From Daejeonella lutea (GTDB lineage: Bacteria > Bacteroidota > Bacteroidia > Sphingobacteriales > Sphingobacteriaceae): a stretch of DNA of 64,000 bases. A model generated the notes under the pieces. It ran no database searches. It was given only the letters and a program-made list of their open reading frames with translations, and had not been told where the DNA came from. How positions within the stretch are numbered: the first letter of the stretch is position 1; each line of letters opens with the position of its first letter. Below, one piece after another: positions 4,508 to 55,493 of the stretch. A program made the translations under genes and the position numbers. The stretch covers positions 1,424,943 through 1,488,942 of the forward strand of contig NZ_FUYR01000001.1 in NCBI RefSeq assembly GCF_900168015.1, in the 5' to 3' direction.

Positions 4508-5395
4508 ATGAAACTTATTGCAGTAATTGGCTCAGGTACGATGGGAAACGGCATTGCGCATACCTTTGCTCAGGCAGGATACAGAGTAAACCTGATAGAC
4601 CTCAATCAGGAGCGGTTAAACGCTGCATTGCTTACCATAGAAAAAAATCTTGACCGGCAGATATCGAAAGGACTAATCCTTGCTGATCAAAAAAGCGATG
4701 TGTTGCAGAATATTCAAAGTTTCACGCAATTGAACGAAGGGGTCAGCGATGCCGAGCTGGTTATTGAAGCAGCTACTGAGGACGTGGCCATTAAACTAAA
4801 GATATTCGAAGACCTGGATAAGTTTTGCAAGGCAGATACCATCCTCGCCTCTAATACATCCTCTATCTCGATAACTAAAATTGCCGGGGTGACACGTCGG
4901 CCGGACAAAATAATAGGCATGCACTTCATGAACCCAGTGCCGGTGATGAAGCTTGTTGAAGTCATCAGGGGGTTTAGCACTTCCGATGAGACAACCAAGA
5001 CGATCATGAATCTTTCTGCACAGATAAACAAAGTGCCTGTTGAAGTGCACGACTACCCCGGATTTGTCGCAAACAGAATATTGATGCCGATGATCAATGA
5101 AGCTATCCAGTGCCTGCATGAGAGTGTAGCAGGGGTGCATGAAATCGATACGGTAATGAAGTTAGGTATGTCCCATCCGATGGGGCCCCTGCAACTTGCA
5201 GACTTTATTGGTCTCGACGTATGTCTGGCTATTCTGAATGTACTCTACCAGGGCTTCGGCAATCCCAAGTACGCACCTTCTCCCTTGCTGGTTAATATGG
5301 TGGCATCGGGGCAGTTAGGGGTTAAATCGGGATCGGGATTTTATGATTACACCGGAGGCACAAAGGAACTGGTGGTTTCAAAGAGATGGGGTTGA
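4508..5395 (+). CDS. 3-hydroxybutyryl-CoA / 3-hydroxyacyl-CoA dehydrogenase
   Basis: NAD-dependent oxidation of 3-hydroxyacyl-CoA to 3-oxoacyl-CoA in fatty-acid or butanoate metabolism. The 295-residue protein has the Rossmann GSGTMG loop (8-13), an IEAATED stretch (86-92), SNTSS (115-119) and the catalytic-region HFMNPVP (139-145). A C-terminal dimerisation domain follows. The size fits the single-domain HBD (PaaH/Hbd) type rather than fused FadB. The ATG at 4508 is preferred over an upstream GTG at 4475, because the Rossmann strand begins at once. The stop codon (5393-5395) lies inside a heptamer repeat array that fills part of the gap to argS. An enoyl-CoA hydratase at 19956 could act in the same pathway but is not linked. 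Confidence 0.94.
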   Translation: MKLIAVIGSGTMGNGIAHTFAQAGYRVNLIDLNQERLNAALLTIEKNLDRQISKGLILADQKSDVLQNIQSFTQLNEGVSDAELVIEAATEDVAIKLKIFEDLDKFCKADTILASNTSSISITKIAGVTRRPDKIIGMHFMNPVPVMKLVEVIRGFSTSDETTKTIMNLSAQINKVPVEVHDYPGFVANRILMPMINEAIQCLHESVAGVHEIDTVMKLGMSHPMGPLQLADFIGLDVCLAILNVLYQGFGNPKYAPSPLLVNMVASGQLGVKSGSGFYDYTGGTKELVVSKRWG

Positions 5396-5437
5396 CGGTT
5401 GACGGTTGACAGTTGACAGTTGACGGTTGACAGTTGG
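5391..5437 (+). repeat. Heptamer array, GTTGACR family
   Basis: Six units of 7 bp (GTTGACG or GTTGACA) then GTTGGAG. The array starts inside the stop codon of the dehydrogenase gene. The same word occurs reverse-complemented at 45181-45243 and 55466-55493. Confidence 0.85.
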
Positions 5438-5480
5438 AGCCGTACCTGATCGGAAAGCTTGTACCTGTGAATGCCCTTAT

Positions 5481-5543
5481 TTATTACTGCTTACTGATTA
5501 CTGATCACTGATTGCTGATTACTGATCACTGATTACTGATTAC
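5481..5543 (+). repeat. Heptamer array, TGATTAC family
   Basis: Nine consecutive 7-bp units close to TGATTAC (variants TGATCAC, TGATTGC, TGCTTAC). It lies 14 bp from the argS stop, between convergent genes. A shorter copy lies at 37522-37542. Confidence 0.85.
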
Positions 5544-5557
5544 CAATCACCACTTCC

Positions 5558-7336: not shown

Positions 7337-7363
7337 ATTGTCCGGGCGATGCCCTATCCTATT

Positions 7364-8311: not shown

Positions 8312-8385
8312 TATCTGTTGTGATAGCATAAAGGCAGACTTAAACTTTTACACGCTGGTGTATGTTCTATGCTATATGCTTTTTA

Positions 8386-8393: not shown

Positions 8394-8409
8394 CCAAAAT
8401 TATAAAAAA

Positions 8410-11249: not shown

Positions 11250-11367
11250 GGCTTTAGGACTTAGGTATTAGGGACTTGCCAAAGATGTTTAATTCTGAAA
11301 AATTTCAAAATGGATAGGGACCCAGCACCTAAGACCTAAAGCCTAAAGCCTCACACCTAACCCCTAT
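11250..11367. repeat. Inverted heptamer arms, CCTAAAG/TTAGGAC family
   Basis: The left arm 11250-11277 has four 7-bp units (GGCTTTA, GGACTTA, GGTATTA, GGGACTT). The right arm 11326-11367 has six units (CACCTAA, GACCTAA, AGCCTAA, AGCCTCA, CACCTAA, CCCCTAT). The arms are largely complementary around a 48-bp spacer. The TAG stop of the response regulator gene lies in the last unit. Confidence 0.8.
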
Positions 11368-12156: not shown

Positions 12157-13254
12157 TTATTTTAATGTCTCAGACAGGAATTTCTCCAGTTCCGGACCCC
12201 TTAAATTCTTAGCTACTATCTTGCCGGTACGGTCGATCATAAATGAAGCTGGAATGCCCTCCACCTTATATAGGGCCGCAATTTCGCTGTCCCAGCGCTT
12301 CAGATCAGATACATGATTCCAGCGGAGGTTATCGTATCGAATTGCACGCATCCAGTCACCTTTGTCGTCGTCCAGTGATACTCCCAGCACGTCGAACCCT
12401 TTCGCAGCAAAAGCCTGATGCTGTTTTACGATATTCGGGTTCTCTTCACGGCAAGGACCACACCAAGATGCCCAGAAATCCAGTAATACATATTTCCCTT
12501 TGTATTCAGATAGTTTTATTGGGATCCCTTCAGGATTATTTAGCGCAAAGTCAGGCGCCATTTGGCCGACCGACACCGTTTTGATGCCTTCCATCTTTTT
12601 GACGAACATCGTCACCGCCTTGTTTTTAGGGAATTTAGGCTTAATCTCTTCAGCATATTTGATGAGTTGCTGCTCATATTTGTTTTGATCGATGGTACCG
12701 GCCGCATAAAAAGCAGCGAGGTTATCCTTGTTCTCCTCGACAAACTTTAAGACTGTCTCGGCATATTTATCCATGTTCGCCTGAAATTCAGGCATTATAA
12801 CTTTGTATATGGAATCCCTTTTTGATGTATCTGCGGAAACCTTGGCAGCATATTCGGCCTGAAGTTTCTGGTAAATCTTTCCAAAATCGCTTTGCATCAT
12901 ATTTACCTCCTGAACCTTTGCAGATTCATCAGAACCTTTAATTGTGTAGGTGTTTGTGGTATCAGAGTAATTAGTATTAAGCTCTATTTCTTCGCCATTC
13001 TTACCAATAACCAGGAAATTCTTTTCACCGATCACCAGCGTATAGAAATTCGGATCTGGTGCTACACGTCTGAATTTGAACTCGCTGTCTTCATTAAGAA
13101 ATGCAGAATCAACCAGTGAGTCGGCTTCATAAAGGAGGATCTTTTTCACTTCACCCGGATTTTCTACTTTTCCGGAGATATTCAACTCATTACTGTTTTT
13201 GCAGGATGCTGCAAAAACGATTGCCGCAAAGGCGCCTATGATTAATTTTTTCAC
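12157..13254 (-). CDS. TlpA-like thioredoxin lipoprotein with N-terminal DUF4369-like domain
   Basis: Periplasm-facing thiol-disulfide reductase anchored by a lipid (lipobox FAASC, Cys18). Residues about 25-110 match the DUF4369 beta domain common in Bacteroidota. A helical linker follows, and residues 235-365 form an AhpC-TSA/TlpA thioredoxin fold with the redox pair WCGPC (264-268) and a cis-Pro loop in GIPASF. The likely role is reduction or isomerisation of extracytoplasmic thiols, possibly in cytochrome c maturation, which is an inference from the family. The start is a GTG that overlaps the gatB stop as GTGA (13251-13254), so translation is probably coupled to gatB although the functions are unrelated. 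Confidence 0.93.
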   Translation of the reverse strand: MKKLIIGAFAAIVFAASCKNSNELNISGKVENPGEVKKILLYEADSLVDSAFLNEDSEFKFRRVAPDPNFYTLVIGEKNFLVIGKNGEEIELNTNYSDTTNTYTIKGSDESAKVQEVNMMQSDFGKIYQKLQAEYAAKVSADTSKRDSIYKVIMPEFQANMDKYAETVLKFVEENKDNLAAFYAAGTIDQNKYEQQLIKYAEEIKPKFPKNKAVTMFVKKMEGIKTVSVGQMAPDFALNNPEGIPIKLSEYKGKYVLLDFWASWCGPCREENPNIVKQHQAFAAKGFDVLGVSLDDDKGDWMRAIRYDNLRWNHVSDLKRWDSEIAALYKVEGIPASFMIDRTGKIVAKNLRGPELEKFLSETLK

Positions 13255-14723
13255 GATCTGTTCTCTAATTTCTCTACTACTAATTTATTTGCAACCTGGG
13301 GATTGATCTTACCCTTCGACTTCTTCATGATATCACCCATGAAAAGCCCCAGCACACCTTTTTTACCGTTTTGGTATTCCTTTACCTTATCGGGATACGA
13401 ACCCAAAACCTCGTCAATAATACTGCTTAATTCGTCACTTGACGTATCAATTAAAACACCCAATGCTTTCGCAGTATACATAGCCGGCAGTTCCGGATTG
13501 GCGATCATTTCAGGGAACACCTTTTGAGCAGCGACCGAGTTATTAATCGATCCGTTATCGATAAGGGTAATTAAATCTGAAAGTGCTGCGGGCTTCACAC
13601 TAAAGTCAGCAATGCTCTTTCCATTGTCATTCAACCAGGACCTAACAGCGCCATTTATCCAGTTCACCCCTGATTTAAAGTTTGTGTTATAAGTGGCAAA
13701 GGTTTCGAAATATGCAGCTGTGTCTTTATCTGACGCTATTGAATCTGCGTCGTACTCTGACAGTCCAAACTCTGCGGTATAACGGTTTATTTTCTGTGCC
13801 GGCAATTCCGGAATGGAAGCGGCTATCTCATTTATATATTCTTCATTAAGTACCAGTGGCTGCAGATCCGGTTCGGGGAAATAACGGTAATCATTTGCCA
13901 TTTCCTTTCTACGCAAAGGACTTGTGGTACCCGTTTCGGCGTCAAAATTGAGCGTATTCTGTTCGACATGCCCTCCAGCTTCAAGAATACCGACCTGGCG
14001 TACAAATTCATGCTCAATTGCTCGCTGCAGGTTTCTCATAGAATTGAGGTTCTTCACTTCACATCGGTTACCGTACTCTTTCGCACCTTTGAGACGGACT
14101 GAGATATTAGCATCACAACGGATACTGCCTTCCTCCATGTTGCCATCGCAGATATCCAGGTATTTCACCAGCTTTCTGATTTCGTTGAGATAGGCCGCAG
14201 CTTCTGCCGCAGAGCGGATATCGGGTTCGGATACCACTTCCAGCAAAGGCACGCCCGCACGATTCAAGTCAATCAGCGAATCGCTGTCGTCCTGATCATG
14301 CATACTCTTGCCCGCATCATCTTCCATGTGAATGCGATGGATCCTGATCCTGGATTTAGCCTGGTTAGCGGTCTGGATATCCAGATATCCTTCTTTGCAA
14401 ATCGGCTCACTGTCCTGCGTGGTCTGGAAGCCCTTGGGAAGATCGGCGTAGAAGTAATGCTTACGATCAAAATGGTTATGCATGTTGATGCCGCAATTTG
14501 TAGCCAACCCCAACTTGATAGCATACTCAACCACTTTTTTATTTAGTCGTGGCAGCGTTCCCGGCAATCCTAGGCTAATGGGACTGATGTTCTCATTCGG
14601 TCCTGCACCAAAACCCGCTGAGTCTGTAGAAAATATTTTGCTCGCCGTTGACAGCTGCACGTGGACCTCAAGGCCAACAACCAGTTCGTACTTATCTTTT
14701 ATACTATCGGGAATTACCGTCAT
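13251..14723 (-). CDS. gatB: Aspartyl/glutamyl-tRNA amidotransferase subunit B
   Basis: Part of the GatCAB complex that converts Glu-tRNA(Gln) and Asp-tRNA(Asn) to the amide forms. The 490 residues include the catalytic cradle with VGLEVHVQL, RKHYFYADLPKGFQ and the DFNRAGVPLLE-type stretch (here DLNRAGVPLLEV), followed by the YqeY-like tail domain ending at about 490. gatC lies far away at 50676 and no gatA is visible, so the complex is encoded at scattered loci. The TACCTTTG -7 element ends only 5 bp before the ATG, which suggests an mRNA with little or no leader. Confidence 0.97.
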   Translation of the reverse strand: MTVIPDSIKDKYELVVGLEVHVQLSTASKIFSTDSAGFGAGPNENISPISLGLPGTLPRLNKKVVEYAIKLGLATNCGINMHNHFDRKHYFYADLPKGFQTTQDSEPICKEGYLDIQTANQAKSRIRIHRIHMEDDAGKSMHDQDDSDSLIDLNRAGVPLLEVVSEPDIRSAAEAAAYLNEIRKLVKYLDICDGNMEEGSIRCDANISVRLKGAKEYGNRCEVKNLNSMRNLQRAIEHEFVRQVGILEAGGHVEQNTLNFDAETGTTSPLRRKEMANDYRYFPEPDLQPLVLNEEYINEIAASIPELPAQKINRYTAEFGLSEYDADSIASDKDTAAYFETFATYNTNFKSGVNWINGAVRSWLNDNGKSIADFSVKPAALSDLITLIDNGSINNSVAAQKVFPEMIANPELPAMYTAKALGVLIDTSSDELSSIIDEVLGSYPDKVKEYQNGKKGVLGLFMGDIMKKSKGKINPQVANKLVVEKLENRS

Positions 14724-14736: not shown

Positions 14737-14749
14737 GTGAATTGAGATT

Positions 14750-14858
14750 TGAGAACTGAAAACTGAAAACTGAAAGTGGAAGTATGACTACACCCTTACT
14801 TACTTTTTTCGCATTCGCCCAGTACGCCTGCTTCAGTTTTCAGCTTTCCCTTTTCAGT
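14750..14858. repeat. Inverted heptamer arms, TGAAAAC family
   Basis: The left arm 14750-14777 is TGAGAAC, TGAAAAC, TGAAAAC, TGAAAGT. The right arm 14831-14858 is CTTCAGT, TTTCAGC, TTTCCCT, TTTCAGT, complementary to the left word. The alaS stop (14854-14856) lies inside the last unit. Bases 14757-14777 are identical to 40428-40448 inside bioA. Confidence 0.85.
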
Positions 14859-17483: not shown

Positions 17484-17585
17484 GGAGATGAGGCGAGATA
17501 CGAGAAGCGAGATGCGAGATTTAACCCATCTCCCAACTCGTATCTGGATTCTCGTTTTTCGATTCTTGTTTCTCATTTCCATTTC
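17484..17585. repeat. Inverted heptamer arms, ATACGAG/CTCGTTT family
   Basis: The left arm 17484-17518 has five units (GGAGATG, AGGCGAG, ATACGAG, AAGCGAG, ATGCGAG). The right arm 17530-17585 has eight units (such as CTCGTAT, CTCGTTT, TTCGATT, CTTGTTT). It fills most of the gap between the divergent alaS and MerR genes. The same family lies at 46563-46738. Confidence 0.85.
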
Positions 17586-28570: not shown

Positions 28571-28608
28571 TTTGAGTATCAAGAATCAAGTATCAGGAAT
28601 CAAGATTA
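28566..28608 (+). repeat. Heptamer array, CAAGAAT/AAGTATC family
   Basis: Six 7-bp units (ATTGATT, TGAGTAT, CAAGAAT, CAAGTAT, CAGGAAT, CAAGATT). The stop codon of the LTA-synthase-like gene is in the first. Confidence 0.7.
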
Positions 28609-31959: not shown

Positions 31960-32201
31960 TCATGCTCATCGGAGGGTTCACGGGAAGATAGTCAACGACT
32001 ACAAGCGGAAAATTTGTTGCCGGTTCGGTGATCGATGGTATTCCTCAAACACAGGAAATGCTGGATTTCTGCGGTGAGCATAATATCGTTTTGGAATTTG
32101 AGGTAATTAGGATGCAGGGGATTAACGAAGCTTATGCATGGATGCTGAAAAGTGATGTGCGGTATCGGTTTGTGATTGATATGGGGACATTGAAGGTGTA
32201 A
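31960..32201 (+). pseudogene. Remnant of an alcohol dehydrogenase gene (C-terminal end only)
   Basis: Codons from 32004 to the TAA at 32199-32201 translate to a 65-residue tail (FVAGSVIDGIPQTQEMLDF ... YRFVIDMGTLKV) that matches the last part of the intact dehydrogenase ending at 30477 almost residue by residue. Upstream bases 31960-32003 contain a stop and only a weak match (LIGGFTGR), so the frame is broken. No start or catalytic half exists. It points to a former duplicate of the dehydrogenase, with the copper/DUF305 pair now lying between the intact and dead copies. Confidence 0.9.
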
Positions 32202-33984: not shown

Positions 33985-33995
33985 ATTCAACTGCA

Positions 33996-35189
33996 ATGAT
34001 AGAGACTATTAGCATCTCCGAACTTAAACCAGAATTATTGACACGATATTTGGAGGTTAGAAAACATTCAGAAGACATCTGCGCTCCATTGCAGACAGAG
34101 GATTATGTCGTGCAGCCGATTGCGGATGTAAGTCCCCCAAAATGGCATTTAGGCCATACCACCTGGTTTTTCGAAACTTTTATTTTGCTGCCTAATTTCC
34201 CTGGCTACACGGTATTCGATTCACAATACAATTTTGTATTTAACAGCTACTATGAGACTGTTGGAGCGAGGGTAATCCGAACAGACCGTGGAAACCTCAG
34301 CCGGCCTTCTGTCGACGATGTTTACCGTTACCGCGAATATGTTGATCAGAAAATGCAGGAGTTTTTAACTAGCGGCCTAGTTGCCGGGCCAATTGCAACC
34401 TTGCTGGAACTGGGACTCAACCACGAGCAGCAGCACCAGGAGCTACTCTACACCGACATTAAATATATCCTGGGCCATAACCCACTTTTTCCGCTATATA
34501 GTGGCGATTATAAAACTCTGATTAATAATTCTGAAGAACGCAAAATAGTCAGAATTCCTGAAGGGGTTTATGAAATCGGGCACACTGGTGATGGTTTTTC
34601 ATTTGACAATGAACTGGGCCGGCACCGGGTTTACCTTGATGCTTATGAAATTTCAAATCAGCTGGTCACCAACGGGGAATATCTTGATTTTATTACGAGC
34701 GGTGGCTATACAGATTTCCGTCACTGGCACGCCGAAGGTTGGGACTGGGCTAAAGAAAGTGCTAAAGCTCCGCTTTACTGGCACCAGATAGATGGGAGGT
34801 GGATGAATTATACCTTTGAGGGTCTACAGGTGCTCGACCTTGATGCTCCAGTTTGCCACATTAACTTTTATGAAGCTTCGGCCTATGCATCATGGAAGGG
34901 AAAACGATTACCAACAGAGGCCGAATGGGAAGTTGCCTCGAATCAATTCAATTGGGGACAGCGTTGGGAATGGACTGGAAGTGCGTACCTGCCCTATCCA
35001 GGCTTCAAAAAGGAACCGGGCGCAGTCGGCGAATACAATGGCAAATTTATGGTAAACCAAATGGTATTAAGGGGTGCGTCAGAGGCCACCCCCAAGGGAC
35101 ATAGCAGAAATACATATCGTAATTTCTTTCATGCACATCACCAATGGCAGCTCACGGGAATCAGGCTGGCTGATGGCATAAGCAGATGA
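33996..35189 (+). CDS. egtB: Ergothioneine synthase EgtB (sulfoxide-forming, non-heme iron)
   Basis: Joins hercynine with a thiol and oxidises the product to a sulfoxide. The 397 residues are a DinB-like iron domain (1-about 160) with the HX3HXE motif in NHEQQHQE (H143, H147, E149) plus the third histidine H51 in KWHLGH, followed by the formylglycine-enzyme-like domain (about 185-395, ending RNTYRNFFHAHHQWQ then TGIRLADG). EgtB enzymes use either gamma-glutamylcysteine or cysteine. No egtA or egtC gene is visible here, which favours the cysteine-using type. That is inference. The ATG at 33996 is preferred over the TTG at 33972. Confidence 0.95.
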   Translation: MIETISISELKPELLTRYLEVRKHSEDICAPLQTEDYVVQPIADVSPPKWHLGHTTWFFETFILLPNFPGYTVFDSQYNFVFNSYYETVGARVIRTDRGNLSRPSVDDVYRYREYVDQKMQEFLTSGLVAGPIATLLELGLNHEQQHQELLYTDIKYILGHNPLFPLYSGDYKTLINNSEERKIVRIPEGVYEIGHTGDGFSFDNELGRHRVYLDAYEISNQLVTNGEYLDFITSGGYTDFRHWHAEGWDWAKESAKAPLYWHQIDGRWMNYTFEGLQVLDLDAPVCHINFYEASAYASWKGKRLPTEAEWEVASNQFNWGQRWEWTGSAYLPYPGFKKEPGAVGEYNGKFMVNQMVLRGASEATPKGHSRNTYRNFFHAHHQWQLTGIRLADGISR

Positions 35190-35201
35190 AAAAAGCGAAG
35201 A

Positions 35202-36353
35202 ATGAAGTACAATTTTGATGAAGTACAGGCCAGAAGAGGCACGCATTCCATAAAATGGGATACTGCTGACGCGGATGAAATCTTACCAATGTGGATTGCG
35301 GATATGGACTTCAGGACATTTCCTCCCATTGTTGATGCGCTGACAAGAACTACCGCGCAAGGACATTACGGTTATAATATAGTCCCCAGTGAATATTATG
35401 AGGCAATTATGCTTTGGTGGCAGAAACGCCATGGATATAAGATAAAAAAAGACTCAATACTCCCTTCAACAGGTGTCGTAGCTGGCATATCAGCCATCTT
35501 TTCAGTCCTGACTAAACCTGGAGACGAGGTTATTATTCAGACACCTGCTTACAATCATTTCTACAATGTTATAAAGGGTGCAGGCTGCACACCAGTGGAA
35601 AATGAGCTGTTTTATGAAGATGGTGTATACAAGGTTGATTTCGACGATCTTGAAACTAAAGCAAGGTCTGGCAAGGCCAAAATTCTGTTGCTCTGCAATC
35701 CTCATAACCCTGTGGGCCGCGCATGGAACGAACATGAGCTGCAATCGATAGCGTCCATTTGCACACGGCATGACGTTTACGTGGTATCCGATGAGATCCA
35801 TTCTGACCTCCTTGCTCCTGGAAAACAACATGTTTCCTTCCTGTCAGTTACAGCCGCTCAGCACCAGGCAATAGTCTGCAGCGCCGCCAGTAAGACTTTC
35901 AATCTTTCAGGCTTGCATGCAGCATATCTATTTGTTGATAACGAGGCCATCAGGAAAGAAATTGAAGTACAACTTTGGGCCCAGGGAGCCGCGGCACCAA
36001 GCCTGTTGGCCTGCGAAGCGTTAAAAGTCGCTTACACAAAGGGGGATGAATGGCTAAATGAACTTAATAATTATCTCCACGGAAACTACCAGTTTCTTAA
36101 AGAATTTATCAGCACAAATATGAACAATATCAAGGTTTTGACGCTTGAAGCAACTTACCTTGTTTGGCTGGACTGTAAGCAAACTGGAATGAAGTCGAAA
36201 GAACTCGCAGACCACCTAATAAAAAACGAAAATTTGTGGGTTAATCCCGGAGATATGTATGGAGCAGCTGGTGAGGGCTTTTTACGGATAAACATTGCGT
36301 GCCCACGACAAACCCTGATCGACGGGTTAAATCGTCTTAAAAATATCCTGTAG
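35202..36353 (+). CDS. MalY/PatB-family PLP C-S lyase, candidate hercynylcysteine sulfoxide lyase
   Basis: 383-residue fold-I PLP enzyme. The lysine lies in SAASKTFNLSGLH and cofactor-binding SDEIHSDL precedes it. The N-terminal RRGTHSIKWD and MWIADMDF are PatB/cystathionine beta-lyase signatures. The family cleaves C-S bonds in cysteine conjugates. Being 12 bp after egtB, it is a good candidate for the last ergothioneine step (EgtE role), cutting hercynylcysteine sulfoxide to ergothioneine. A general cystathionine or cysteine-conjugate beta-lyase role is the alternative. Confidence 0.88.
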   Translation: MKYNFDEVQARRGTHSIKWDTADADEILPMWIADMDFRTFPPIVDALTRTTAQGHYGYNIVPSEYYEAIMLWWQKRHGYKIKKDSILPSTGVVAGISAIFSVLTKPGDEVIIQTPAYNHFYNVIKGAGCTPVENELFYEDGVYKVDFDDLETKARSGKAKILLLCNPHNPVGRAWNEHELQSIASICTRHDVYVVSDEIHSDLLAPGKQHVSFLSVTAAQHQAIVCSAASKTFNLSGLHAAYLFVDNEAIRKEIEVQLWAQGAAAPSLLACEALKVAYTKGDEWLNELNNYLHGNYQFLKEFISTNMNNIKVLTLEATYLVWLDCKQTGMKSKELADHLIKNENLWVNPGDMYGAAGEGFLRINIACPRQTLIDGLNRLKNIL

Positions 36354-36570
36354 GTTCTACATCGATTCTGTATTTAATTTCTAACCTACCACTTCAATTT
36401 TATTGGACCTTACCTTGTGGCGGTTCGTCAACGCATTGCCGATGACTTGCTTTTGTTAACGAAGAGAATGATGATCATCCCTTCCCGATAAGTTCGCTCG
36501 AAAACAAAAATCACGCAGAATTTCTACCCATTTTCTTTACAAATCTCAAAATAAAGCGAATTCTTCATTA

Positions 36571-36661
36571 CGAATTTCATAATTCCTCAAGTGCCGGGCT
36601 TGCGAATTTCATAATTCGTCAAGTTCCGACGTTGCGGATTTCATAATTGCGAGTTAACCGG
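36571..36661 (+). repeat. 32-bp tandem repeat, about 2.8 copies
   Basis: Copies at 36571-36602 and 36603-36634 differ at only a few positions. A third copy from 36635 is diverged after 17 bp. Each contains CGAATTTCATAATT or CGGATTTCATAATT. A partial inverted copy follows at about 36661-36690. Confidence 0.85.
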
Positions 36662-36729
36662 CATTATGAATCTCGCAAAAGTGACTTGACGGGGTTCAGG
36701 AGCGGATTTTGTGCGTAAATTAAGGGGAA

Positions 36730-36771
36730 GGACGGAGGTTTGAGGTCAGAGGCCTGAAGTCGGAGGCCGGA
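36730..36771 (+). repeat. Heptamer array, GGTCAGA/AGTCGGA family
   Basis: Six units: GGACGGA, GGTTTGA, GGTCAGA, GGCCTGA, AGTCGGA, GGCCGGA. More degenerate 7-bp units continue to about 36925, including TGAAAGC, TGAAAGT and GGAAAAG at 36865-36885. Confidence 0.8.
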
Positions 36772-36979
36772 CGTGGCAGGTAGTTTTATGAGGAAGGTTT
36801 GGAGTCGAAGCAGCAGGTACGAGGAATGAAGCAGGAAAAAGGACACTGGAGCAGGAAAATTAGTTGAAAGCTGAAAGTGGAAAAGCTGAAATAAGTTGGA
36901 GAGCTGGGACGGATTGGGATGCGATGCAGAAACCTGCAGCTTTTGACTCAAATTGACTCCATTTTGATGATTAGGGCTT

Positions 36980-37023
36980 CACCCTGTTTAAGCACTGAGA
37001 TCACACTGTCTAAGCACTGAGAT
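36980..37023 (+). repeat. 22-bp tandem duplication
   Basis: Copies 36980-37001 and 37002-37023 share TAAGCACTGAGAT and differ at two positions. A third partial copy begins at 37024. Confidence 0.8.
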
Positions 37024-37118
37024 CACCCTTAGATAAAACGACAGGAATTGGTGCGTGGATGTGCGGTTTTGGAGGGCATGACGGACAGGGTTGCGGGTTT
37101 TAGCGGGAAGTGAAACGA

Positions 37119-37174
37119 GGTTTGAAGTCGGAGGGCTGAAGTCGGAAGGCGGAGGTCGGAGGTCAGAAGTCTGA
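37119..37174 (+). repeat. Heptamer array, AGTCGGA family (8 units)
   Basis: Units are GGTTTGA, AGTCGGA, GGGCTGA, AGTCGGA, AGGCGGA, GGTCGGA, GGTCAGA, AGTCTGA, all in register. Confidence 0.85.
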
Positions 37175-37336
37175 GCTGGATGGGTAGCTATGGGAGAGGC
37201 ATAAGATGAACGTAGAGTCAGGCAGGGATTGGCGTGAGATGAACGTATGATGGGGCCTGAGAGGATTGTACCGGTATGAGTATTAAATATAAACCATTTA
37301 AATTATTGCGTATGGGAAAGGAAGAATGAAACATAA

Positions 37337-37385
37337 GGTATGAAGAAGGAAGTCTGAAGTCGGAAGTCTGAGGTCAGAAGTCTGA
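37337..37385 (+). repeat. Heptamer array, AGTCTGA family (7 units)
   Basis: Units are GGTATGA, AGAAGGA, AGTCTGA, AGTCGGA, AGTCTGA, GGTCAGA, AGTCTGA. Confidence 0.85.
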
Positions 37386-37503
37386 GAGGGGCGACTGGAG
37401 TATGTGGCCACGTACTGTTTGGAAATCTTCCTGGGCTTGAGGCGGGTTTTCGGGAAAGGGTAAGAGCGGATGGGCTCTCTACCCAGACCAGATCCAATTA
37501 GCC

Positions 37504-37521
37504 GCCTGCCGTCAGGCAGGC
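37504..37521. repeat. Perfect 7-bp inverted repeat with GTCA loop
   Basis: GCCTGCC, then GTCA, then GGCAGGC. A relative, CCTGCCTG with a CGGG loop, lies at 38976-38995. Confidence 0.7.
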
Positions 37522-37542
37522 CGATTACTGATTATTGACTAC
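37522..37542 (+). repeat. Short heptamer array, TGATTAC family
   Basis: Units are CGATTAC, TGATTAT, TGACTAC. Same word as 5481-5543. Confidence 0.6.
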
Positions 37543-37730
37543 CATTAAAACGGCAAAGAAAGACCTGCCTTACGGTCAATAGCTTACTGTTGCTTTAAAC
37601 ACAAACACTGGTGCATTACAGTTATTGGGTTCTAATCCCGAATGGTGCCGTTAGTATGGTGAGGTCCGAACCGGCGGAAGTACACTGAACGCGAAAGAGG
37701 CGGTAAGTATGAAGACTCTGCTAAAAGTAA

Positions 37731-37785
37731 AGTCTGATGTCGGAGGTCGGAAGTCTGATGAATTTCCGACCTCTGATTTCAGACT
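37731..37785. repeat. Inverted heptamer arms, AGTCTGA family
   Basis: The left arm 37731-37758 is AGTCTGA, TGTCGGA, GGTCGGA, AGTCTGA. The right arm 37765-37785 is TCCGACC, TCTGATT, TCAGACT. The spacer is 6 bp, so a hairpin can form. Confidence 0.85.
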
Positions 37786-37871
37786 ATTTGAAAGATGTGG
37801 TCTGTAACACAACAGGGAATTGTATGTGTCATGTAACACAAAGACTTAAGTGCGCGTAGGGACTATTACCT

Positions 37872-38841: not shown

Positions 38842-39079
38842 CCTCCGATGCCCTCTCTTTTAACCCTACACTGTCATCCGATAGTTCTTGGCTCTTTGGG
38901 CTCTAACATACACACCGGCAGCTTCCACCACTAAACCAATTCCCAAATTACCAATCCACACTTGGTTCCTGACCCCCTGCCTGCGGGCAGGCAGGTTGGT
39001 TCTTAGCTATTTTGGGCACTAGCGTACAAACCGATCTCTTTCACTAAAAATCAAATTCCCAAATCACCCAGCCCAGGTC

Positions 39080-39142
39080 CTTACTCTTTATTCTTTGTTC
39101 CTTGTTCCTAACTCTTTGTTCCTTGCTCCTTGTTCCCTATAA
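39080..39142 (-). repeat. Heptamer array, CTTGTTC family (9 units)
   Basis: Units are CTTACTC, TTTATTC, TTTGTTC, CTTGTTC, CTAACTC, TTTGTTC, CTTGCTC, CTTGTTC, CCTATAA. The stop codon of the ferritin-like gene (39137-39139) lies in the last unit. Confidence 0.85.
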
Positions 39143-39746: not shown

Positions 39747-41021
39747 TTAAAATTGATCTAAGGCTTGCTCTATTTTTTTGTAAATATACTCCAGCTCATC
39801 ATTTGTGATGCAATATGGAGCCATTATGTAAATGATGTTACCCAGCGGGCGTAAAAGTATACCCTCGCCGAGGAAGAAGTTATATAGCTGGTCGCGGAGT
39901 GTATTGAAGTACGATGTACTGTCGCCTGTCTCCCACTCCATCGCCAGGATAGTGCCCGTTTGCCGGATAGTCCTGACCTTGCGGTGCGCTGATACGCGTG
40001 CGGCAAACTGCTTGTGCTGCTCTTCAATACGGCTGATATTGGCTAGGGTTTCTGGCATCAACAGGAGGTCGAGACTAGCGAGTGCCGCTGAGCAGGTTAC
40101 CGGATTGGCAGTAAAAGAATGGCCATGGAACAGGGTTTTCAGTTTATCATCTGATAAAAAAGCATCGTAGATCTTAGCGGTGCAGGTTGTAAGGCCAAGA
40201 GCCATCGTACCGCCCGTTATTCCTTTTGAGAAGCACATCAGGTCGGGCTGTTCGGTTAAATGTTCTGAGGCAAACAGCCTTCCTGTCCGGCCAAAACCCG
40301 TCATCACCTCATCAGCAATGGTGAGAATCCCCTCTGTTTTACAATGGGCCAGCAGATCGTCCAGGTATTTCGCCTCATACATATTCATTCCTCCGGCTCC
40401 CTGAACAAGTGGTTCGAAGATGAAAGCTGAAAACTGAAAACTGAAAGTTGAAATATGCTCCCTAAGGCGGGAAATGTTATCCGCGTTAGGAAGGTCTATG
40501 AACTCCACATCGAACAACAGCTGATCGAATGGTTTGGTGAATGCACTGCGGGCGCTTACGGCCATTGCGCCAAAGGTATCACCATGGTATGAATTGTGAA
40601 AGGCGAGGACTTTTGTGCGGGGCTGCCCTTTATTGCTCCAGTACTGGAAGCACATTTTGAGGGCGACTTCAACGGCAGTGGATCCATTGTCTGAATAAAA
40701 GACACGCTTTTGATTATCCGGCAGGATGTCCAGTAAACGCTCAGCCAGCTCTACAGCTGTCGGGTGTGTGAAGCCGGCAAATATAACGTGCTCGAGTGTA
40801 CGCAGTTGTTCAGCGACCTTCTCTGCAATGTAAGGGTGCGCATGTCCATGGATGTTAACCCACCAGGAAGATACGGCATCGATATATTTGGTACCATCTT
40901 CAGCAATAAGATGAACGCCATCCCCCCTAACTATGGGAATGGGTGCAGCAGCCGTTTGCATCTGGGTATAAGGATGCCAGATAACAGCCTGGTCGCGCTC
41001 TGCTAGTGATCTTGTAGCCAT
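39747..41021 (-). CDS. bioA: Adenosylmethionine-8-amino-7-oxononanoate aminotransferase
   Basis: PLP transaminase that makes 7,8-diaminopelargonate in biotin synthesis. The 424 residues start with DQAVIWHPYTQMQ, contain WWVNIHGHAHP, HNSYHGDTFGAM, EPLVQGAGGMNMYE, ADEVMTGFGRTG and a lysine in CFSKGITGG. An unusual feature is that residues about 189-201 (HISTFSFQFSAF) are encoded by five in-register TGAAAAC-family heptamers (40421-40455). This is a repeat within the reading frame at the loop before EPLVQGAGG, where family members normally have a helix. The start overlaps the Nudix gene by 19 bp. No other biotin gene is in the window. Confidence 0.96.
   Translation of the reverse strand: MATRSLAERDQAVIWHPYTQMQTAAAPIPIVRGDGVHLIAEDGTKYIDAVSSWWVNIHGHAHPYIAEKVAEQLRTLEHVIFAGFTHPTAVELAERLLDILPDNQKRVFYSDNGSTAVEVALKMCFQYWSNKGQPRTKVLAFHNSYHGDTFGAMAVSARSAFTKPFDQLLFDVEFIDLPNADNISRLREHISTFSFQFSAFIFEPLVQGAGGMNMYEAKYLDDLLAHCKTEGILTIADEVMTGFGRTGRLFASEHLTEQPDLMCFSKGITGGTMALGLTTCTAKIYDAFLSDDKLKTLFHGHSFTANPVTCSAALASLDLLLMPETLANISRIEEQHKQFAARVSAHRKVRTIRQTGTILAMEWETGDSTSYFNTLRDQLYNFFLGEGILLRPLGNIIYIMAPYCITNDELEYIYKKIEQALDQF
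40421..40455 (-). repeat. Heptamer array inside the bioA coding sequence
   Basis: Five units on the plus strand: TGAAAGC, TGAAAAC, TGAAAAC, TGAAAGT, TGAAATA. Three units repeat exactly the sequence at 14757-14777. Because 7 bp is not a multiple of 3, the repeat is read as a changing peptide (ISTFSFQFSAF). Confidence 0.85.
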
Positions 41022-42557: not shown

Positions 42558-43754
42558 ATGAACACATTATCAAACAGAATTAACTATTTATCCGAGTCAG
42601 CCACCATTAAAATGGCAAAAATGGGCCGGGAATTAGCTGCAAAAGGCGTTGATGTTATCAGCCTCAGTCTAGGAGAAACAGATTTTTACACTCCTGACTT
42701 TGTCAAACAGGCAGCTAAAGAAGCTATTGACCAGAATTTTTCCTACTACACTCCTGTTCCGGGATATCCTGAACTGCGAAAGGCGATTGCCGCTAAGTTA
42801 AAGCGCGAGAATAACCTTGACTATGATTTCGATCAGATAGTGGTATCAACAGGGGCAAAACAATCACTGGCCAATGCAATTCTGTGTGTCGTTAACCCGG
42901 GTGATGAGGTTGTGATACCTACACCTTATTGGGTTTCCTATTCTGAACTTGTTAAATTAGCAGACGGCGAGTCTGTATTCATCAATACTACCCTGGAGAG
43001 TGATTTCAAGATCACCCCGGAACAGCTTGAAGCGGCTATTACACCGAAGACAAAGCTTTTCATGTTCTCATCGCCAAACAATCCTACAGGAACGGTTTAT
43101 ACGCGTGATGAACTTGCTGCATTGGTTAAAGTGTTTGAGAAATATCCGCAGATCTATATCATTTCGGATGAGATCTATGAGCACATCAATTTCCTGAATG
43201 AGCACGAATCTATTGCACAGTTCGAAAGTGTTAAAGACCGTGTGATCATTATCAACGGGCTCTCTAAAGCTTACGCGATGACTGGCTGGAGAATTGGTTA
43301 TTCTGCTACCAGCAAAGAACTTGCTGCCGCATGCGATAAGCTTCAAAGCCAGATCACTTCCGGTACTTCCTCTATCACTCAAAAAGCGGGAATTGCTGCT
43401 TACGAAGGTGGATTAGATACCATCAAGGAAATGAAGGCGGTTTTCAAAGAACGCCGCGACCTGGTTTACGGCTTGCTAAAAGACATCCCGGGGCTAAAAG
43501 TAAATTTACCGGGCGGGGCGTTTTATTTCTTCCCTGATGTAAGTTCTTTCTTCGGTAAAACTGCTCCGGATGGTTCAACGATTAAGAATGCAGAAGATGT
43601 TTCTTTATATCTGCTGAACACCGGCCATGTGGCTACAGTAAGTGGTGATTCTTTCGGCGATCCAAACTCTATACGTCTCTCATACGCAGCAGCGAATGAA
43701 AAGCTGATCGAAGCGATGAAGCGGATTAAGGAGGCATTGGGAGCGCTAAAATAG
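42558..43754 (+). CDS. aspC: Class I pyridoxal-phosphate aminotransferase (aspartate type)
   Basis: 398-residue transaminase, probably converting aspartate and 2-oxoglutarate to oxaloacetate and glutamate. PLP-binding features are STGAKQSL, the SSPNNPTG loop, IISDEIYEH, the catalytic lysine in NGLSKAYAMTGWRIGY, and RLSYAAA with substrate-binding Arg at the end. The ATG at 42558 fits the strong promoter just upstream. An upstream frame from 42525 would read through the -7 box and is rejected. Its stop codon abuts the heptamer element 43754-44001. Confidence 0.93.
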   Translation: MNTLSNRINYLSESATIKMAKMGRELAAKGVDVISLSLGETDFYTPDFVKQAAKEAIDQNFSYYTPVPGYPELRKAIAAKLKRENNLDYDFDQIVVSTGAKQSLANAILCVVNPGDEVVIPTPYWVSYSELVKLADGESVFINTTLESDFKITPEQLEAAITPKTKLFMFSSPNNPTGTVYTRDELAALVKVFEKYPQIYIISDEIYEHINFLNEHESIAQFESVKDRVIIINGLSKAYAMTGWRIGYSATSKELAAACDKLQSQITSGTSSITQKAGIAAYEGGLDTIKEMKAVFKERRDLVYGLLKDIPGLKVNLPGGAFYFFPDVSSFFGKTAPDGSTIKNAEDVSLYLLNTGHVATVSGDSFGDPNSIRLSYAAANEKLIEAMKRIKEALGALK

Positions 43755-44001
43755 TTATACGTTGTACGTTGTACGTTGTACGTCTAGGCGGATAAGTTTG
43801 ATTAATGAGCAATAGGTAACATAAGTATTAAACTAAAGTTTAGTACGAGAGGTTATGCGTTTTGCACGTATATCTTATAACGTGGCCTGGGCGGATAAGG
43901 TAGATTAATAAGCAATAGGCAACCTAAAAGTAGTAAACAATAAGTTTTGTACGTGAGGTTATGCGGTTTGCACGTATAACGTACAACGTATAACGTATAA
44001 C
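43754..44001. repeat. Composite element: inverted GTTGTAC heptamer arms around a 100-bp duplication
   Basis: The left arm 43754-43781 is GTTATAC then three GTTGTAC. The right arm 43974-44001 is GTATAAC, GTACAAC, GTATAAC, GTATAAC, its reverse complement family. Between them are two imperfect direct copies of about 100 bp (43787-43889 and 43890-43980), each starting GGCGGATAAG and containing AGCAATAGG, GAGGTTATGCG and TTTGCACGTATA. The element fills the whole gap between two rightward genes. Confidence 0.88.
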
Positions 44002-44005
44002 TCAA

Positions 44006-46562: not shown

Positions 46563-46738
46563 GTACGAGAAACGAGAAGCGAGAAACGAGCTCCGGACAA
46601 ACTGCCTAATTTTCAGAAACAACGCCTATCAAGCCGCGGGAAAGGAATTTGAGAAGATCGAATCAGTAATCTAAAGGTCATTACCCCTTAATCTATCTCG
46701 ATTCTCGTTTCTCGATTCTCGTTTGCCGTTTCCCTTTT
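46563..46738. repeat. Inverted heptamer arms, AAACGAG/CTCGTTT family
   Basis: The left arm 46563-46590 is GTACGAG, AAACGAG, AAGCGAG, AAACGAG. The right arm 46697-46738 is CTCGATT, CTCGTTT, CTCGATT, CTCGTTT, GCCGTTT, CCCTTTT. The 106-bp spacer shows nothing recognisable. The element lies between the -7 boxes of two divergent genes. Confidence 0.88.
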
Positions 46739-46753
46739 CCCGATTTATTTTCC

Positions 46754-49751: not shown

Positions 49752-49759
49752 GTAGCAGA

Positions 49760-49862
49760 AGTCAGAAGTCTGAGGTCAGAGGTCTGAGATTATCAGGTTA
49801 ATATTGTTAGGGTGGGATACATCAACGGTTACTTTCGGTACTCTGACATCAGACCTCCGACT
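49760..49862. repeat. Inverted heptamer arms, AGTCTGA/GGTCTGA family
   Basis: The left arm 49760-49787 is AGTCAGA, AGTCTGA, GGTCAGA, GGTCTGA. The right arm 49842-49862 is TCTGACA, TCAGACC, TCCGACT. The spacer is 54 bp. The element fills the gap between two leftward genes and touches the stop codon of the ABC ATPase. Confidence 0.88.
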
Positions 49863-50969: not shown

Positions 50970-50983
50970 CTTATTGGGTAATT

Positions 50984-51730: not shown

Positions 51731-51736
51731 TCTTAT

Positions 51737-51744
51737 CAAAAATA
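51737..51744 (-). promoter_or_regulatory. -7 element (TATTTTTG) for plsC
   Basis: Reverse-strand TAnnTTTG, 6 bp before the ATG at 51730. Suggests a nearly leaderless plsC transcript. Confidence 0.5.
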
Positions 51745-51826
51745 GGAAATTCCCAAACAATTGACAGGGACATTAATGGCTGGTTCCGTTGATCCGTTAG
51801 AGAAAAAACCTTACTTTCGCCCCTAT

Positions 51827-52822: not shown

Positions 52823-52903
52823 CGATTTTGCCGGAATAAAAAAACAATTAGTATTTTCAAACTCGCTTTGCGCCTGCCGCTTGGCATTTACCTTATTTAT
52901 ATC

Positions 52904-53518: not shown

Positions 53519-53529
53519 TCGCGACTAAA
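53514..53529. promoter_or_regulatory. Perfect 16-bp palindrome TTTAGTCGCGACTAAA
   Basis: Exactly self-complementary, spanning the stop of the deoxynucleoside kinase gene and lying 8 bp before the kdsB ATG. The position suits a regulatory site or a short stem, but no regulator is implied by the sequence. Confidence 0.35.
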
Positions 53530-53537
53530 TCACAAGG

Positions 53538-54284: not shown

Positions 54285-54286
54285 TA
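54273..54286 (+). repeat. Heptamer pair CCTGATA at the kdsB stop
   Basis: Two exact CCTGATA units. The TGA stop of kdsB (54282-54284) lies in the second. Short, so chance cannot be excluded. Confidence 0.45.
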
Positions 54287-54316
54287 CCCCAAATCTGACA
54301 CAGCAACACTTTGGCA

Positions 54317-55408
54317 ATGAAAATACTCACTATATCTCTTTCTCTAATCATGCTTAGCCAAACCACACTTGCCCAGCTGGAAAAACGACTCGATTCGGCA
54401 ATTGCAAGCTCCGTCCAATCAGGTGAGCCGGGGATTGCATTGTACGTTGAAAACAATGGAAAGGTGATTTATAAAAATGCCTTTGGCTTAGATAATACGA
54501 ATGGCAAAAAACTTTCTGCAACTACAAACTTCAGAATGGCATCGGTATCCAAGCAATTTACTGCAATGTGCATCCTGCTGCTTGAAAAGGACGGGAAGGT
54601 TTCTTTTGATGATCCAATATCACGTTTCTTTCCTGAAATTCCGGCAGTTGTAGGGAATAAAATCCTTTTACGGCATTTATTAACCCATTCATCAGGAATT
54701 ATCGACTATGAGAACATCATGGATAATTCGAAAACTACCCAGCTTCTGGATGCTGATGTACTTACGCTCCTTTCAAAGCAGGACACGACCTATTTTACCC
54801 CGGGAAGCAAGTTTCGCTACAGTAACTCCGCCTATGCTTTGCTCGCGCTAATAACGGAAAGGGTATCGGGCAAGTCGTTTCCTCAATTTATGAAAGACCG
54901 CATCTTCAAGCCGCTTAAAATGAAAAATTCGCTGATGTATGAGGGCTCTACCCCTATCCCAAATCGGGCTATGGGATTTGCGAGGGACAGGAACAAAATG
55001 CTCTATGCGAACGACCAAAGTTCAACCAGTGCTGTTAAAGGAGATGGAGGGGTTTACACGTCACTAAACGATTATAGCAAATGGACACATGCTTTATGGG
55101 AGGGTAAGTTAGTAGATCTTCCGGCGGTTTTAAAGCGATTGAATTTCCCCATAAAGCAAGTAACCGGAAGTTACTACGGTCCCGGATGGTTTTATTTCGA
55201 TAAAGATCAGCCCTCGCTATTCCATTCGGGAAGTACCTGCGGGTTTAGCACCTTCTCTATCAACATTCCGGGGCAAAAAACATCAATTGTTTATTATTCC
55301 AACATTGCTAATAATTCGGCTCCATGGAAAAAGATCCTGGAAATTTTAGCGAGTGAAGGAATAGCGAACCCCGCGCAAGTGTTTCAACTTCATGAATTAA
55401 CAAGATAA
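54317..55408 (+). CDS. Serine hydrolase of the beta-lactamase/DD-peptidase family
   Basis: 363-residue periplasmic or lipid-anchored serine enzyme with a signal peptide (about 1-19, TTLAQ). It has the class C-type motifs SxxK in ASVSKQFTA (Ser about 78), YSN in FRYSNSAY and HSG in LFHSGSTCG. These belong to the beta-lactamase-related (Pfam Beta-lactamase) group, which includes esterases and D-aminopeptidases as well as class C enzymes. Resistance function is not implied. Monocistronic between kdsB and cysE. Confidence 0.9.
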   Translation: MKILTISLSLIMLSQTTLAQLEKRLDSAIASSVQSGEPGIALYVENNGKVIYKNAFGLDNTNGKKLSATTNFRMASVSKQFTAMCILLLEKDGKVSFDDPISRFFPEIPAVVGNKILLRHLLTHSSGIIDYENIMDNSKTTQLLDADVLTLLSKQDTTYFTPGSKFRYSNSAYALLALITERVSGKSFPQFMKDRIFKPLKMKNSLMYEGSTPIPNRAMGFARDRNKMLYANDQSSTSAVKGDGGVYTSLNDYSKWTHALWEGKLVDLPAVLKRLNFPIKQVTGSYYGPGWFYFDKDQPSLFHSGSTCGFSTFSINIPGQKTSIVYYSNIANNSAPWKKILEILASEGIANPAQVFQLHELTR

Positions 55409-55465
55409 TTTGCAGTTGCTCGTGGAACGTGGGAAGTAACGGTTTGACTCCACATTGTGTGCACT

Positions 55466-55493
55466 GTCAACTCTCAACTTTCAACTGTCAACT
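55466..55493 (-). repeat. Heptamer array, GTCAACT family (4 units)
   Basis: GTCAACT, CTCAACT, TTCAACT, GTCAACT, the same word family as 45181-45243 and the reverse of 5391-5437. It lies in the gap between the serine hydrolase and cysE genes. Confidence 0.75.

What the first reader, a model, noticed from the sequence alone, without database searches (positions are those of the whole stretch)
5391..55493. Many intergenic repeats with one period (7 bp) but unrelated words
About twenty stretches consist of in-register 7-bp units. The words differ between loci (GTTGACR, TGATTAC, TGAAAAC, AGTCTGA/AGTCGGA, GTTGTAC, AAACGAG, CCTAAAG, CTTGTTC, CAAGAAT), yet the period is always 7 and units are degenerate rather than identical. 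Chance or simple polymerase slippage would not fix one period for unrelated words. This points to one process that sets the unit length. The best comparator I know is the heptanucleotide STRR sequences of cyanobacteria. I know of no described mechanism for these in Sphingobacteriaceae.
Basis: partly seen in the sequence, partly recalled or inferred. Interest (0 to 1): 0.8.

Follow-up and report, generated by a model that had tools for sequence, protein, structure and literature searches.

The report
Polar seven-base repeats at gene edges
This bacterium fills many gaps between its genes with tandem seven-base repeats whose words vary but whose direction follows one rule (the G-richer strand nearly always runs away from the adjoining gene), which makes an old puzzle about seven-base repeats in bacteria testable.

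Summary
In the window 16 arrays have period 7 and none has period 4-6, 8-13 or 15; in 464 kb of the genome there are 63 against 0-4 at the other periods from 4 to 13. The words are not simply unrelated: they are a recurring vocabulary largely shared within the genus. New is a polarity rule. Within 3-10 bp of a gene, the strand running away from the gene is G-richer in 36 of 37 informative arrays, at stop-codon and start-codon edges alike; the bias is gone beyond 100 bp. Gaps therefore read [G-rich arm ->] core [<- G-rich arm]: 40 inward pairs, 1 outward, of 62. The rule repeats in the rest of the genus (20:0 of 25) and in other Bacteroidota (19:2 of 23), and resembles published GGGAATC repeats of Xanthomonas (PMC4692102). 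Slippage at a passing fork alone should not give opposite polarity at the two edges of one gap. I favour stepwise growth of the 3'-ending strand from retained edges after a break or loss of the gap; this is inferred. Heptamer excess in bacteria is known: new variant of a known kind.

The parts
5390..5436 (+). heptad arm GTTGACR x6.7 at the 3' end of a 3-hydroxyacyl-CoA dehydrogenase gene; holds its TGA stop (strand given = G-richer strand, here and below)
5437..5483 (+). core between two inward arms; 5438-5466 matches the type I core found 7 times in the genome
5484..5552 (-). heptad arm (AGTAATC on the minus strand), 5 bp from the stop of argS; different word from its partner
11327..11366 (-). 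TAGGCTT-type array overlapping a stop codon; the orthologous gap is 40-82 bp in four relatives without an array and 264 bp, with arrays, in G017
14739..14775 (+). GAACTGA/AAACTGA array between the start of the gene at 13251-14723 (minus strand) and the end of alaS
17494..17520 (+). CGAGATR array beside the alaS start; counted as inside an over-called ORF by the heuristic
17537..17574 (-). inverted partner array (TCTCGTT-type) of 17494-17520
28575..28605 (.). short AGTATCA/AGAATCA array just after a stop codon; G and C nearly balanced
36733..37755 (+). run of GAAGTCT/GAAGTCG arrays (36733-36768, 37123-37175, 37341-37386, 37730-37755) in a 1.5-kb repeated non-coding region
37600..37729 (+). 130-bp conserved repeat core; 12 matches in the genome; followed by different heptad words in different copies
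39078..39136 (-). AGGAACA-type array ending at a stop codon
40417..40453 (+). period-7 array inside a conserved gene (AARCTGA); also at the orthologous place in G013; not part of the intergenic class
43754..43783 (+). left arm GTTGTAC x4.3 starting at the stop codon
43784..43971 (.). 188-bp core with a tandemly duplicated module of about 103-106 bp; the gap is 39-54 bp in four relatives
43972..44001 (-). right arm (GTTATAC on minus strand) ending 4 bp before a start codon
45178..45244 (-). arm GTTGAC/GTTGAG x9.6, 4 bp from a stop codon
46565..46590 (+). left arm ACGAGAA of an inward pair
46696..46741 (-). right arm of the same pair (ACGAGAA on minus strand), upstream of queA
49756..49788 (+). 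CAGAAGT/CTGAGGT array 4 bp from a start codon
55463..55493 (-). ACTGTCA array; breaks the rule for its nearest edge (a stop codon about 55 bp away)

Best explanation
Each intergenic array is an arm that has grown, in steps of 7 nt and multiples, from the edge of a retained sequence into expendable intergenic space. The strand that grows 5'->3' away from the edge is usually the G-richer one. SHOWN: sharp period 7; placement at gene edges, above all after stop codons; G-richer strand outgoing at both edges of a gap; inward pairs; words largely shared within the genus; different words next to the same core; gaps usually longer than in relatives without arrays. INFERRED: the trigger is a break in, or loss of, the gap that leaves two 3' ends facing each other. 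A polymerase re-priming on its own product, with a footprint-sized ruler of about 7 nt, extends each 3' end with a C-poor repeat, and the ends are then joined, often with copied filler (the cores). Selection keeps only events that spare coding sequence and promoters. Words spread because existing arrays serve as templates or primers. No enzyme has been identified.
For: Polarity at both kinds of gene edge in G000 (223 arrays, 18 in ORFs set aside): 3-10 bp, 3' edges 24:1 of 26 and 5' edges 12:0 of 12; 11-40 bp, 12:4 of 17 and 14:1 of 15; beyond 100 bp, 11:12 of 24 and 13:15 of 29. The 3'-edge part was written down first and then met on 20 new stretches: 41:3 of 45, GTTGA-type words sense 23, antisense 3; the reversal at 5' ends (1:18 of 19) was first seen clearly there and was not predicted. 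Adjacent pairs: 40 inward, 1 outward, 20 same-strand, 1 undecided. Arms of an inward pair often differ (24 of 40 at word distance >=2), as two separate extensions would. In gaps of 40-700 bp in seven array-bearing genomes, arrays sit within 10 bp of 3' gene ends in 37% against 11.6% at random and occur in 3 of 72 divergent, 23 of 174 co-directional and 13 of 61 convergent gaps. In gap 43755-44005 the arms reach to 0 and 4 bp of the two genes and the 39-54-bp spacer of four relatives is not recognisable. One 130-bp core carries different words in different copies. Units two apart are identical more often than shuffled (0.219 against 0.161, 0 of 1000). The rule holds in other Bacteroidota, 19:2 of 23, and its edge placement is described for Xanthomonas and Nostoc.
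Against: If arms grow at the core side, core-side units should be youngest and most alike; they are not (39 arrays against 31 of 81, p 0.40). Neighbouring units are not identical more often than shuffled ones (0.165 against 0.163), which unit-by-unit growth would predict. Candidate enzymes do not track array density across 20 genomes of the genus: Ku is absent from G017, the richest by density among the larger samples, and present in G001 and G010 whose samples had none; RT, Y1 transposase and Y-family polymerases do not track either. Arm words match within a pair more than chance (16 of 40 at distance <=1 against 5.2), which independent extension does not predict. CAAGTATC/AAGAATC words have G and C nearly balanced, so beside some copies of the 130-bp core the rule says nothing or is slightly broken. 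At 41-100 bp the bias is gone at 3' edges (7:8) though not at 5' edges (19:1). No strain pair shows an arm before and after. Stop codons inside arrays (18 ORFs) are partly an effect of how ORFs are called.
Confidence: 0.35

Rival explanations
1. Plain replication slippage with a preferred 7-nt step (the published polymerase-footprint idea); arrays are neutral and orientation is incidental.
For: Explains one period for many words, intergenic placement and multiples of 7. Variants concentrate in a few columns as copied variants would. The published proposal is described in PMC4679880 section 3.
Against: A fork crosses both edges of a gap in the same direction, so by itself it should not make the G-rich strand point inward from both (40:1). 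It does not explain the vocabulary shared between distant gaps. Neighbouring units are not identical more often than shuffled ones.
Confidence: 0.15
2. Selection on RNA: inward arms are kept because they work as two-way transcription insulators, either Rho-type loading sites (C-rich, little structure, met just before the next gene from either side) or loose hairpins.
For: Geometry fits; arrays avoid divergent gaps and follow stop codons; arrays fold less than column-permuted versions (61 arrays, mean z +0.38, 20% below zero, ties included); arm words match more than chance.
Against: 24 of 40 pairs do not match well enough for a good hairpin. Several words are not C-rich on the other strand (ACGTTAT, AGTAATC). 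C-rich sequence just before a start codon in a co-directional gap would be expected to lower expression of that gene (inference). It does not explain the number 7.
Confidence: 0.22
3. Families of small non-autonomous elements (MITE-like) with heptad arms as terminal inverted repeats, moved by an unknown transposase.
For: Conserved linkers on the inner side: GGTACGYTT is followed by an array at 6 of 16 exact sites (20 of 300 with up to one mismatch) and preceded by one at 0; CTARACGCTG is preceded by an array at 15 of 19. Type I core in 7 copies, each between two arrays, 5 of them with an AGTAATC-type array on one side. Gaps usually longer than in relatives.
Against: Most pairs share no recognised core; arms of one pair often differ; a similar polarity holds for different words and genera; arrays also flank the 130-bp core on its outside; by eye no target-site duplication in six aligned gaps. 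The other linker, TGGGCGGATAAG, is weak: its exact form occurs twice in 864 kb and never next to an array, though looser matches lie mostly on the inner side.
Confidence: 0.18
4. Inverted duplication by fold-back or template switching copies one arm to the other side of the gap, on top of ordinary slippage.
For: Arm words match within pairs more than between pairs (16 of 40 against 5.2).
Against: Should give outward pairs as readily as inward ones (1 against 40) and does not predict the polarity of single arms.
Confidence: 0.1

Closest known systems
G-rich heptameric repeats of Xanthomonas (GGGAATC) and Nostoc (GGGGAYT), PMC4692102
   Same: Unit of 7; mostly intergenic; in both xanthomonads almost always closer to the ORF on the 5' side of the repeat (mean 28 nt against 160 nt), 70 and 75 cases of two repeats in convergent orientation, 7-8% between divergent ORFs; [quoted passage not shown] length and sequence differ between related species; function unknown (sections 10, 11, 16 read).
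   Different: There one quadruplex-capable word type per lineage, framed by quadruplexes. Here many words, the common ones without GGG, several per genome, often two different words in one pair. Another phylum. Nostoc has only a few paired repeats, and 68% of its repeats are intergenic.
Long simple sequence repeats with heptanucleotide excess (Mrazek and co-workers 2007), as described in PMC4679880 and PMC4692102
   Same: Heptamers are the commonest long simple repeats in most bacterial genomes; polymerase-footprint hypothesis.
   Different: Here arrays are degenerate, and polarity, edge placement and word turnover are measured. Original paper not held.
TAACTGA direct repeats of Beggiatoaceae, some cyanobacteria and five Bacteroidetes, PMC4679880
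   Same: Intergenic heptamers; long arrays in some Bacteroidetes mixed with other heptamers; relatives with shorter gaps lacking repeats (abstract and sections 3, 8, 10 read).
   Different: One fixed word there, mostly just upstream of start codons in the Beggiatoaceae genome studied, where related words are rarely repeated. TAACTGA has one G and one C, so the rule cannot be read from it.
STRR of cyanobacteria (recalled; here seen only as a passage on Calothrix in PMC4692102, and in listings)
   Same: Tandem heptanucleotides.
   Different: Not compared at sequence level here.

Membership tests
Bacterial heptameric long simple sequence repeats | tandem unit of exactly 7 over-represented against neighbouring periods | tested here: met
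   63 against 0-4 at the other periods from 4 to 13 in 464 kb
Bacterial heptameric long simple sequence repeats | mainly non-coding | tested here: met
   60 of 63; 205 of 223 in the larger, array-enriched set; ORF heuristic
G-rich heptamers of Xanthomonas/Nostoc | G-rich strand runs away from the nearby ORF; convergent pairs (pairs in Xanthomonas only) | tested here: met
   against PMC4692102 sections 10 and 16
G-rich heptamers of Xanthomonas/Nostoc | word with runs of 3-4 G | tested here: not met
   common words AGTTGAC, AGTTGAG, AGTAATC, ACGTTAT, AAGTATC have no GGG; a few arrays have units with GGG
Miniature inverted-repeat transposable elements | one terminal inverted repeat shared by the family | tested here: not met
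   arms of a pair differ in 24 of 40 (distance >=2), words differ between pairs
Miniature inverted-repeat transposable elements | target-site duplication and clean empty sites | tested here: inconclusive
   six orthologous gaps aligned and read by eye; relatives too distant to place ends
REP/BIME with RAYT (Y1) transposase | Y1 transposase gene in the genome | tested here: not met
   PF01797 not found at E <= 0.001 in array-rich G000 and G017
Telomerase-like or RT-templated repeats | reverse transcriptase in array-bearing genomes | tested here: not met
   PF00078 in 3 of 20 genomes (G000, G013, G015), absent from G017
Structured RNA family of Rfam | match at gathering score | tested here: not met
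   0 in the window; one tRNA in seven 20-kb stretches; only a sub-threshold microRNA match in 36360-37870
TAACTGA repeats of Beggiatoaceae | the word TAACTGA as the array word | tested here: not met
   not among the 31 canonical words of G000's first sample; the word does occur in arrays of other genomes of the genus, e.g. G017

The most novel reading that the evidence does not exclude
Bacteria of more than one phylum (Bacteroidota here; Xanthomonas and, for edge placement, Nostoc by the published description) extend broken 3' ends with C-poor heptads through a protein-set 7-nt ruler that is independent of the word. It would be a template-poor analogue of de novo telomere addition, whose joined products are the inward arm pairs between genes.
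Probability: 0.15. Interest if true: 0.92.

Novelty: new variant of a known kind. Interest (0 to 1): 0.62.

Why it matters
Why heptamers dominate long simple repeats in bacteria has, as far as the papers seen here tell, one untested proposal dating from 2007. A polarity rule that holds for many words, at both kinds of gene edge and in several genera, argues against fork slippage as the whole cause. It shows the Xanthomonas geometry without runs of G, and gives a measurable signature that any proposed mechanism must meet. Arrays also reach into gene 3' ends in places, which matters for annotation.

Tried and rejected
Trans-acting candidates: RT, Y1 transposase, Ku and Y-family polymerase do not follow array density. 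Stop codons as the reason for orientation: outgoing against other strand 34:28, a much poorer descriptor than G-C, 62:6; the TGA excess among in-array stops (11 of 18 against 146 of 683) is expected from GTTGAC words and not used as evidence. Self-folding of words as the driver: arrays fold less than permuted ones. Word spread as single heptamers: none of seven words tested exceeds the maximum of its permuted versions. Strict register: not kept. A permissive TRF run for indel counts was swamped by chance arrays and not used. Directional ageing of units: no. GGTACGCTT as a general flank motif looked weak in the first 63 arrays and became clear only as a subset motif with a strand-specific test; TGGGCGGATAAG stayed weak. 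The type I core has no consensus fold; its model found nothing at E <= 0.01 in 19 relatives, with 150 first-look candidates scored per genome. The new stretches for the polarity test were picked from GTTGACA hits, so they are enriched for that word; rates are quoted only from evenly spaced stretches. ORF calls are a longest-ORF heuristic except where homologues were compared. In the set called other genera, L071 has the contig length of G010's contig and so belongs to the genus, and some MAG loci have no genus name. Structure prediction was not used: there is no protein of interest.
Full report
What was checked. The window is part of a 4.03-Mb, 10-contig genome (G000). Its nearest named hits with queA are a Sphingobacteriales MAG, then Pedobacter and Mucilaginibacter. 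Tandem Repeats Finder and an independent ungapped detector both show period-7 arrays across the stated range and little at other short periods. In 464 kb (window plus 20 evenly spaced 20-kb stretches) there are 63 arrays at period 7, 0-4 at the other periods from 4 to 13, and many at 14 and 21, where heptads also match. Density is uneven: 0 to 7 strong arrays per 20 kb. Elsewhere the peak is lower: 19 in 412 kb and 24 in 538 kb of Bacteroidota loci, and only 12 in 540 kb of other genera of the family, where period 15 reaches 7.

Words. Consensus words, compared over rotations and strands, repeat far more than letter-permuted words (122 exact pairs against 3). GTTGAC-like words are the largest group (33 of 63 under loose linkage); AAGAATC/AACCAAG, AATCAGT and AACGTAT groups follow. 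Unique words are shared with other species of the genus more than expected in most comparisons (not G013 with G017), not with other Sphingobacteriaceae loci, and at most weakly with other Bacteroidota. The exact 20-mer GTTGACAGTTGACAGTTGAC occurs in 10 of 151 family genomes, 9 of them in this genus. So the period is widespread and the words are largely local.

Distribution in the genus. In conserved synteny, samples differ sharply: 17 arrays in 50 kb (G017), 8 in 80 kb (G013), 0 in 80 kb (G012 and G001), 0 in 43 kb (G010). G012 is not array-free elsewhere: it has GTTGA-type hits (22) and arrays beside a 130-bp core copy. On an argS tree the label (more than 5 per 100 kb) needs 4 changes and all such genomes sit in one 14-genome clade. 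Several samples are short and the label is rough: G005, labelled without, has 65 GTTGA-type hits genome-wide.

Orthologous gaps. The argS gap holds GTTGAC and AGTAATC arms in G000, AGTAATC and AGTGACC arms in G013, and GAGTATT and other words in G017. In several sister species it holds AGAGTTG/AGAATGG or AGTTGAC arrays beside a different repeat. Nine of 20 genomes show no array in the 420 bp read. Where G000 has arrays, its gap is longer than the orthologous gap in 13 of 17 comparisons with G012, G010 and G001: 162 against 55, 16, 129; 166 against 63, 79, 82; 251 against 51, 39; 265 against 128, 38; 291 against 152, 164; 164 against 115; shorter in 130 against 649, 1682 and 111 against 129, 154.

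Placement and polarity. In seven array-bearing genomes of the genus, in gaps of 40-700 bp, arrays occur in 13 of 61 convergent, 23 of 174 co-directional and 3 of 72 divergent gaps; 37% of distances to a 3' gene end are within 10 bp against 11.6% for random placement, and 12% against 7% for 5' ends. Arrays make up 5.7%, 4.5% and 0.8% of gap bases in these three classes. I then noticed that arrays touching 3' ends are G-rich on the coding strand, wrote that prediction down, fetched 20 new stretches and tested it: 41 G>C against 3 C>G of 45 at 3' ends. The reversal at 5' ends, 1 against 18 of 19, came out of the same test and was not predicted. Put together: the strand that runs away from the gene is G-richer at either kind of edge. 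Over 864 kb and 223 arrays (18 inside ORFs, set aside) the counts are 24:1 (3' edges) and 12:0 (5' edges) at 3-10 bp, 12:4 and 14:1 at 11-40 bp, 7:8 and 19:1 at 41-100 bp, and 11:12 and 13:15 beyond. For arrays that overlap a stop codon the ORF call itself can bias the count (26:1), so the 3-10 bp class is the one to weigh. G minus C describes the rule better (62:6) than purine content (56:14), A minus T (39:25) or stop codons (34:28). The evenly spaced sample alone gives 13:3 and 8:0 at 3-40 bp. Post-stop sequence without arrays shows no such skew (137 against 144 of 302). Elsewhere: rest of the genus 16:0 of 19 and 4:0 of 6; other genera and other Bacteroidota 19:2 of 23. By my reading, 12 of the 13 window arrays that lie within 100 bp of a gene, outside coding sequence, obey; 55463-55493 does not.

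Pairs and cores. Of 62 neighbouring array pairs within 300 bp in G000, 40 point inward, 1 outward, 20 are same-strand and 1 is undecided. Arm words agree (distance <=1) in 16 of the 40 inward pairs against 5.2 when arms are shuffled (at most 14 in 500 shuffles); in 24 they differ. Some cores share ends: GGTACGYTT is followed by an array at 6 of 16 exact sites and preceded by one at 0, and in 30 permuted 9-mers such a neighbour was seen once; CTARACGCTG is preceded by an array at 15 of 19; exact TGGGCGGATAAG occurs twice and never beside an array. The model was trained on these seven; the window copy had been found by an earlier profile that did not include it (E 0.0039).

Same core, different words. 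A 130-bp repeat (window 37600-37729) has 12 matches in G000, 7 in G013 and 1 in G012. I read the flanks of 15 copies. Downstream lie GAAGTCT words (the window copy), CAAGTATC/CAAGAATC words (three copies in G000 and one in G013), CGAGAAR/CGAGCTT units (one copy, by eye, below the detector's score), AGTTGAG words (two in G000, one in G013), or no array. Upstream, some copies keep a common flank and others have a C-rich array. For the GTTGA-type, GAAGTCT and CGAGAA arrays and the upstream C-rich ones, the G-richer strand again runs away from the conserved unit; for CAAGTATC words G and C are nearly balanced, slightly against the rule in one copy.

Mechanism. A fork passes both edges of a gap in one direction, so slippage alone should not make the G-rich strand face inward from both sides. 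Two 3' ends facing each other across a break do have that geometry, and loss of the spacer up to the coding sequence would explain arms that start at stop codons. Divergent gaps would rarely survive such loss. I therefore favour outgrowth from retained edges, at 0.35. Against it stand the lack of directional ageing within arrays (39:31), the absence of extra identity between neighbouring units, matching words within some pairs, and no enzyme that follows the trait. An RNA-level insulator is the strongest rival.

Literature. PMC4692102 (sections 10, 11, 16 and passages) reports for GGGAATC repeats of two xanthomonads: mostly intergenic, nearest ORF on the 5' side at 28 nt against 160 nt, 70 and 75 convergent pairs, 7-8% between divergent ORFs; Nostoc shows the edge preference but few pairs. 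That is similar geometry with a different word. PMC4679880 (abstract, sections 3, 8, 10) covers TAACTGA and summarises the 2007 survey. PMC4060949 was searched for passages only. A general polarity statement across unrelated words was not met in the listings, which cover open-licence papers only.

Noticed in passing
window 36507-37729; L031 1906-3514; 15 stretches L250-L264: A repeated non-coding region of over 1 kb, 76-89% alike between two loci, with a 130-bp core (12 matches in G000, 7 in G013, 1 in G012) that has a GGGTTC...AATCCC stretch and no Rfam match at gathering score; possibly an unknown small RNA or element.
   Followed up: partly
window 30281-30470 and 32005-32194: Two copies of a 190-bp sequence, 82% identical, about 1.7 kb apart.
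   Followed up: no
window 40417-40453; L153 5667-5707: A period-7 DNA array inside a conserved coding gene, kept at the orthologous place in G013.
   Followed up: no
window 32998-36353: Histidine-specific methyltransferase, FGE-sulfatase/DinB-type protein and aminotransferase in a row: looks like an ergothioneine-type or related cluster (Pfam names; pathway recalled).
   Followed up: no
window 37500-37520; L044 near 9415; L045 near 12680: Short palindromes (CCCGATAGCTATCGGG; CCTGCCGTCAGGCAGG-like) recur between genes, in places beside heptad arrays.
   Followed up: no
L058-L063, just after argS: In sister species the argS gap carries a sequence beginning ACCGTCATTTCGAAC with an inverted end further on, with heptad arrays beside it in some.
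   Followed up: no
L155 17970-18900: In G017 the argS gap holds about 0.9 kb of nested heptad arrays repeated as larger units, with words changing in register along one array.
   Followed up: no
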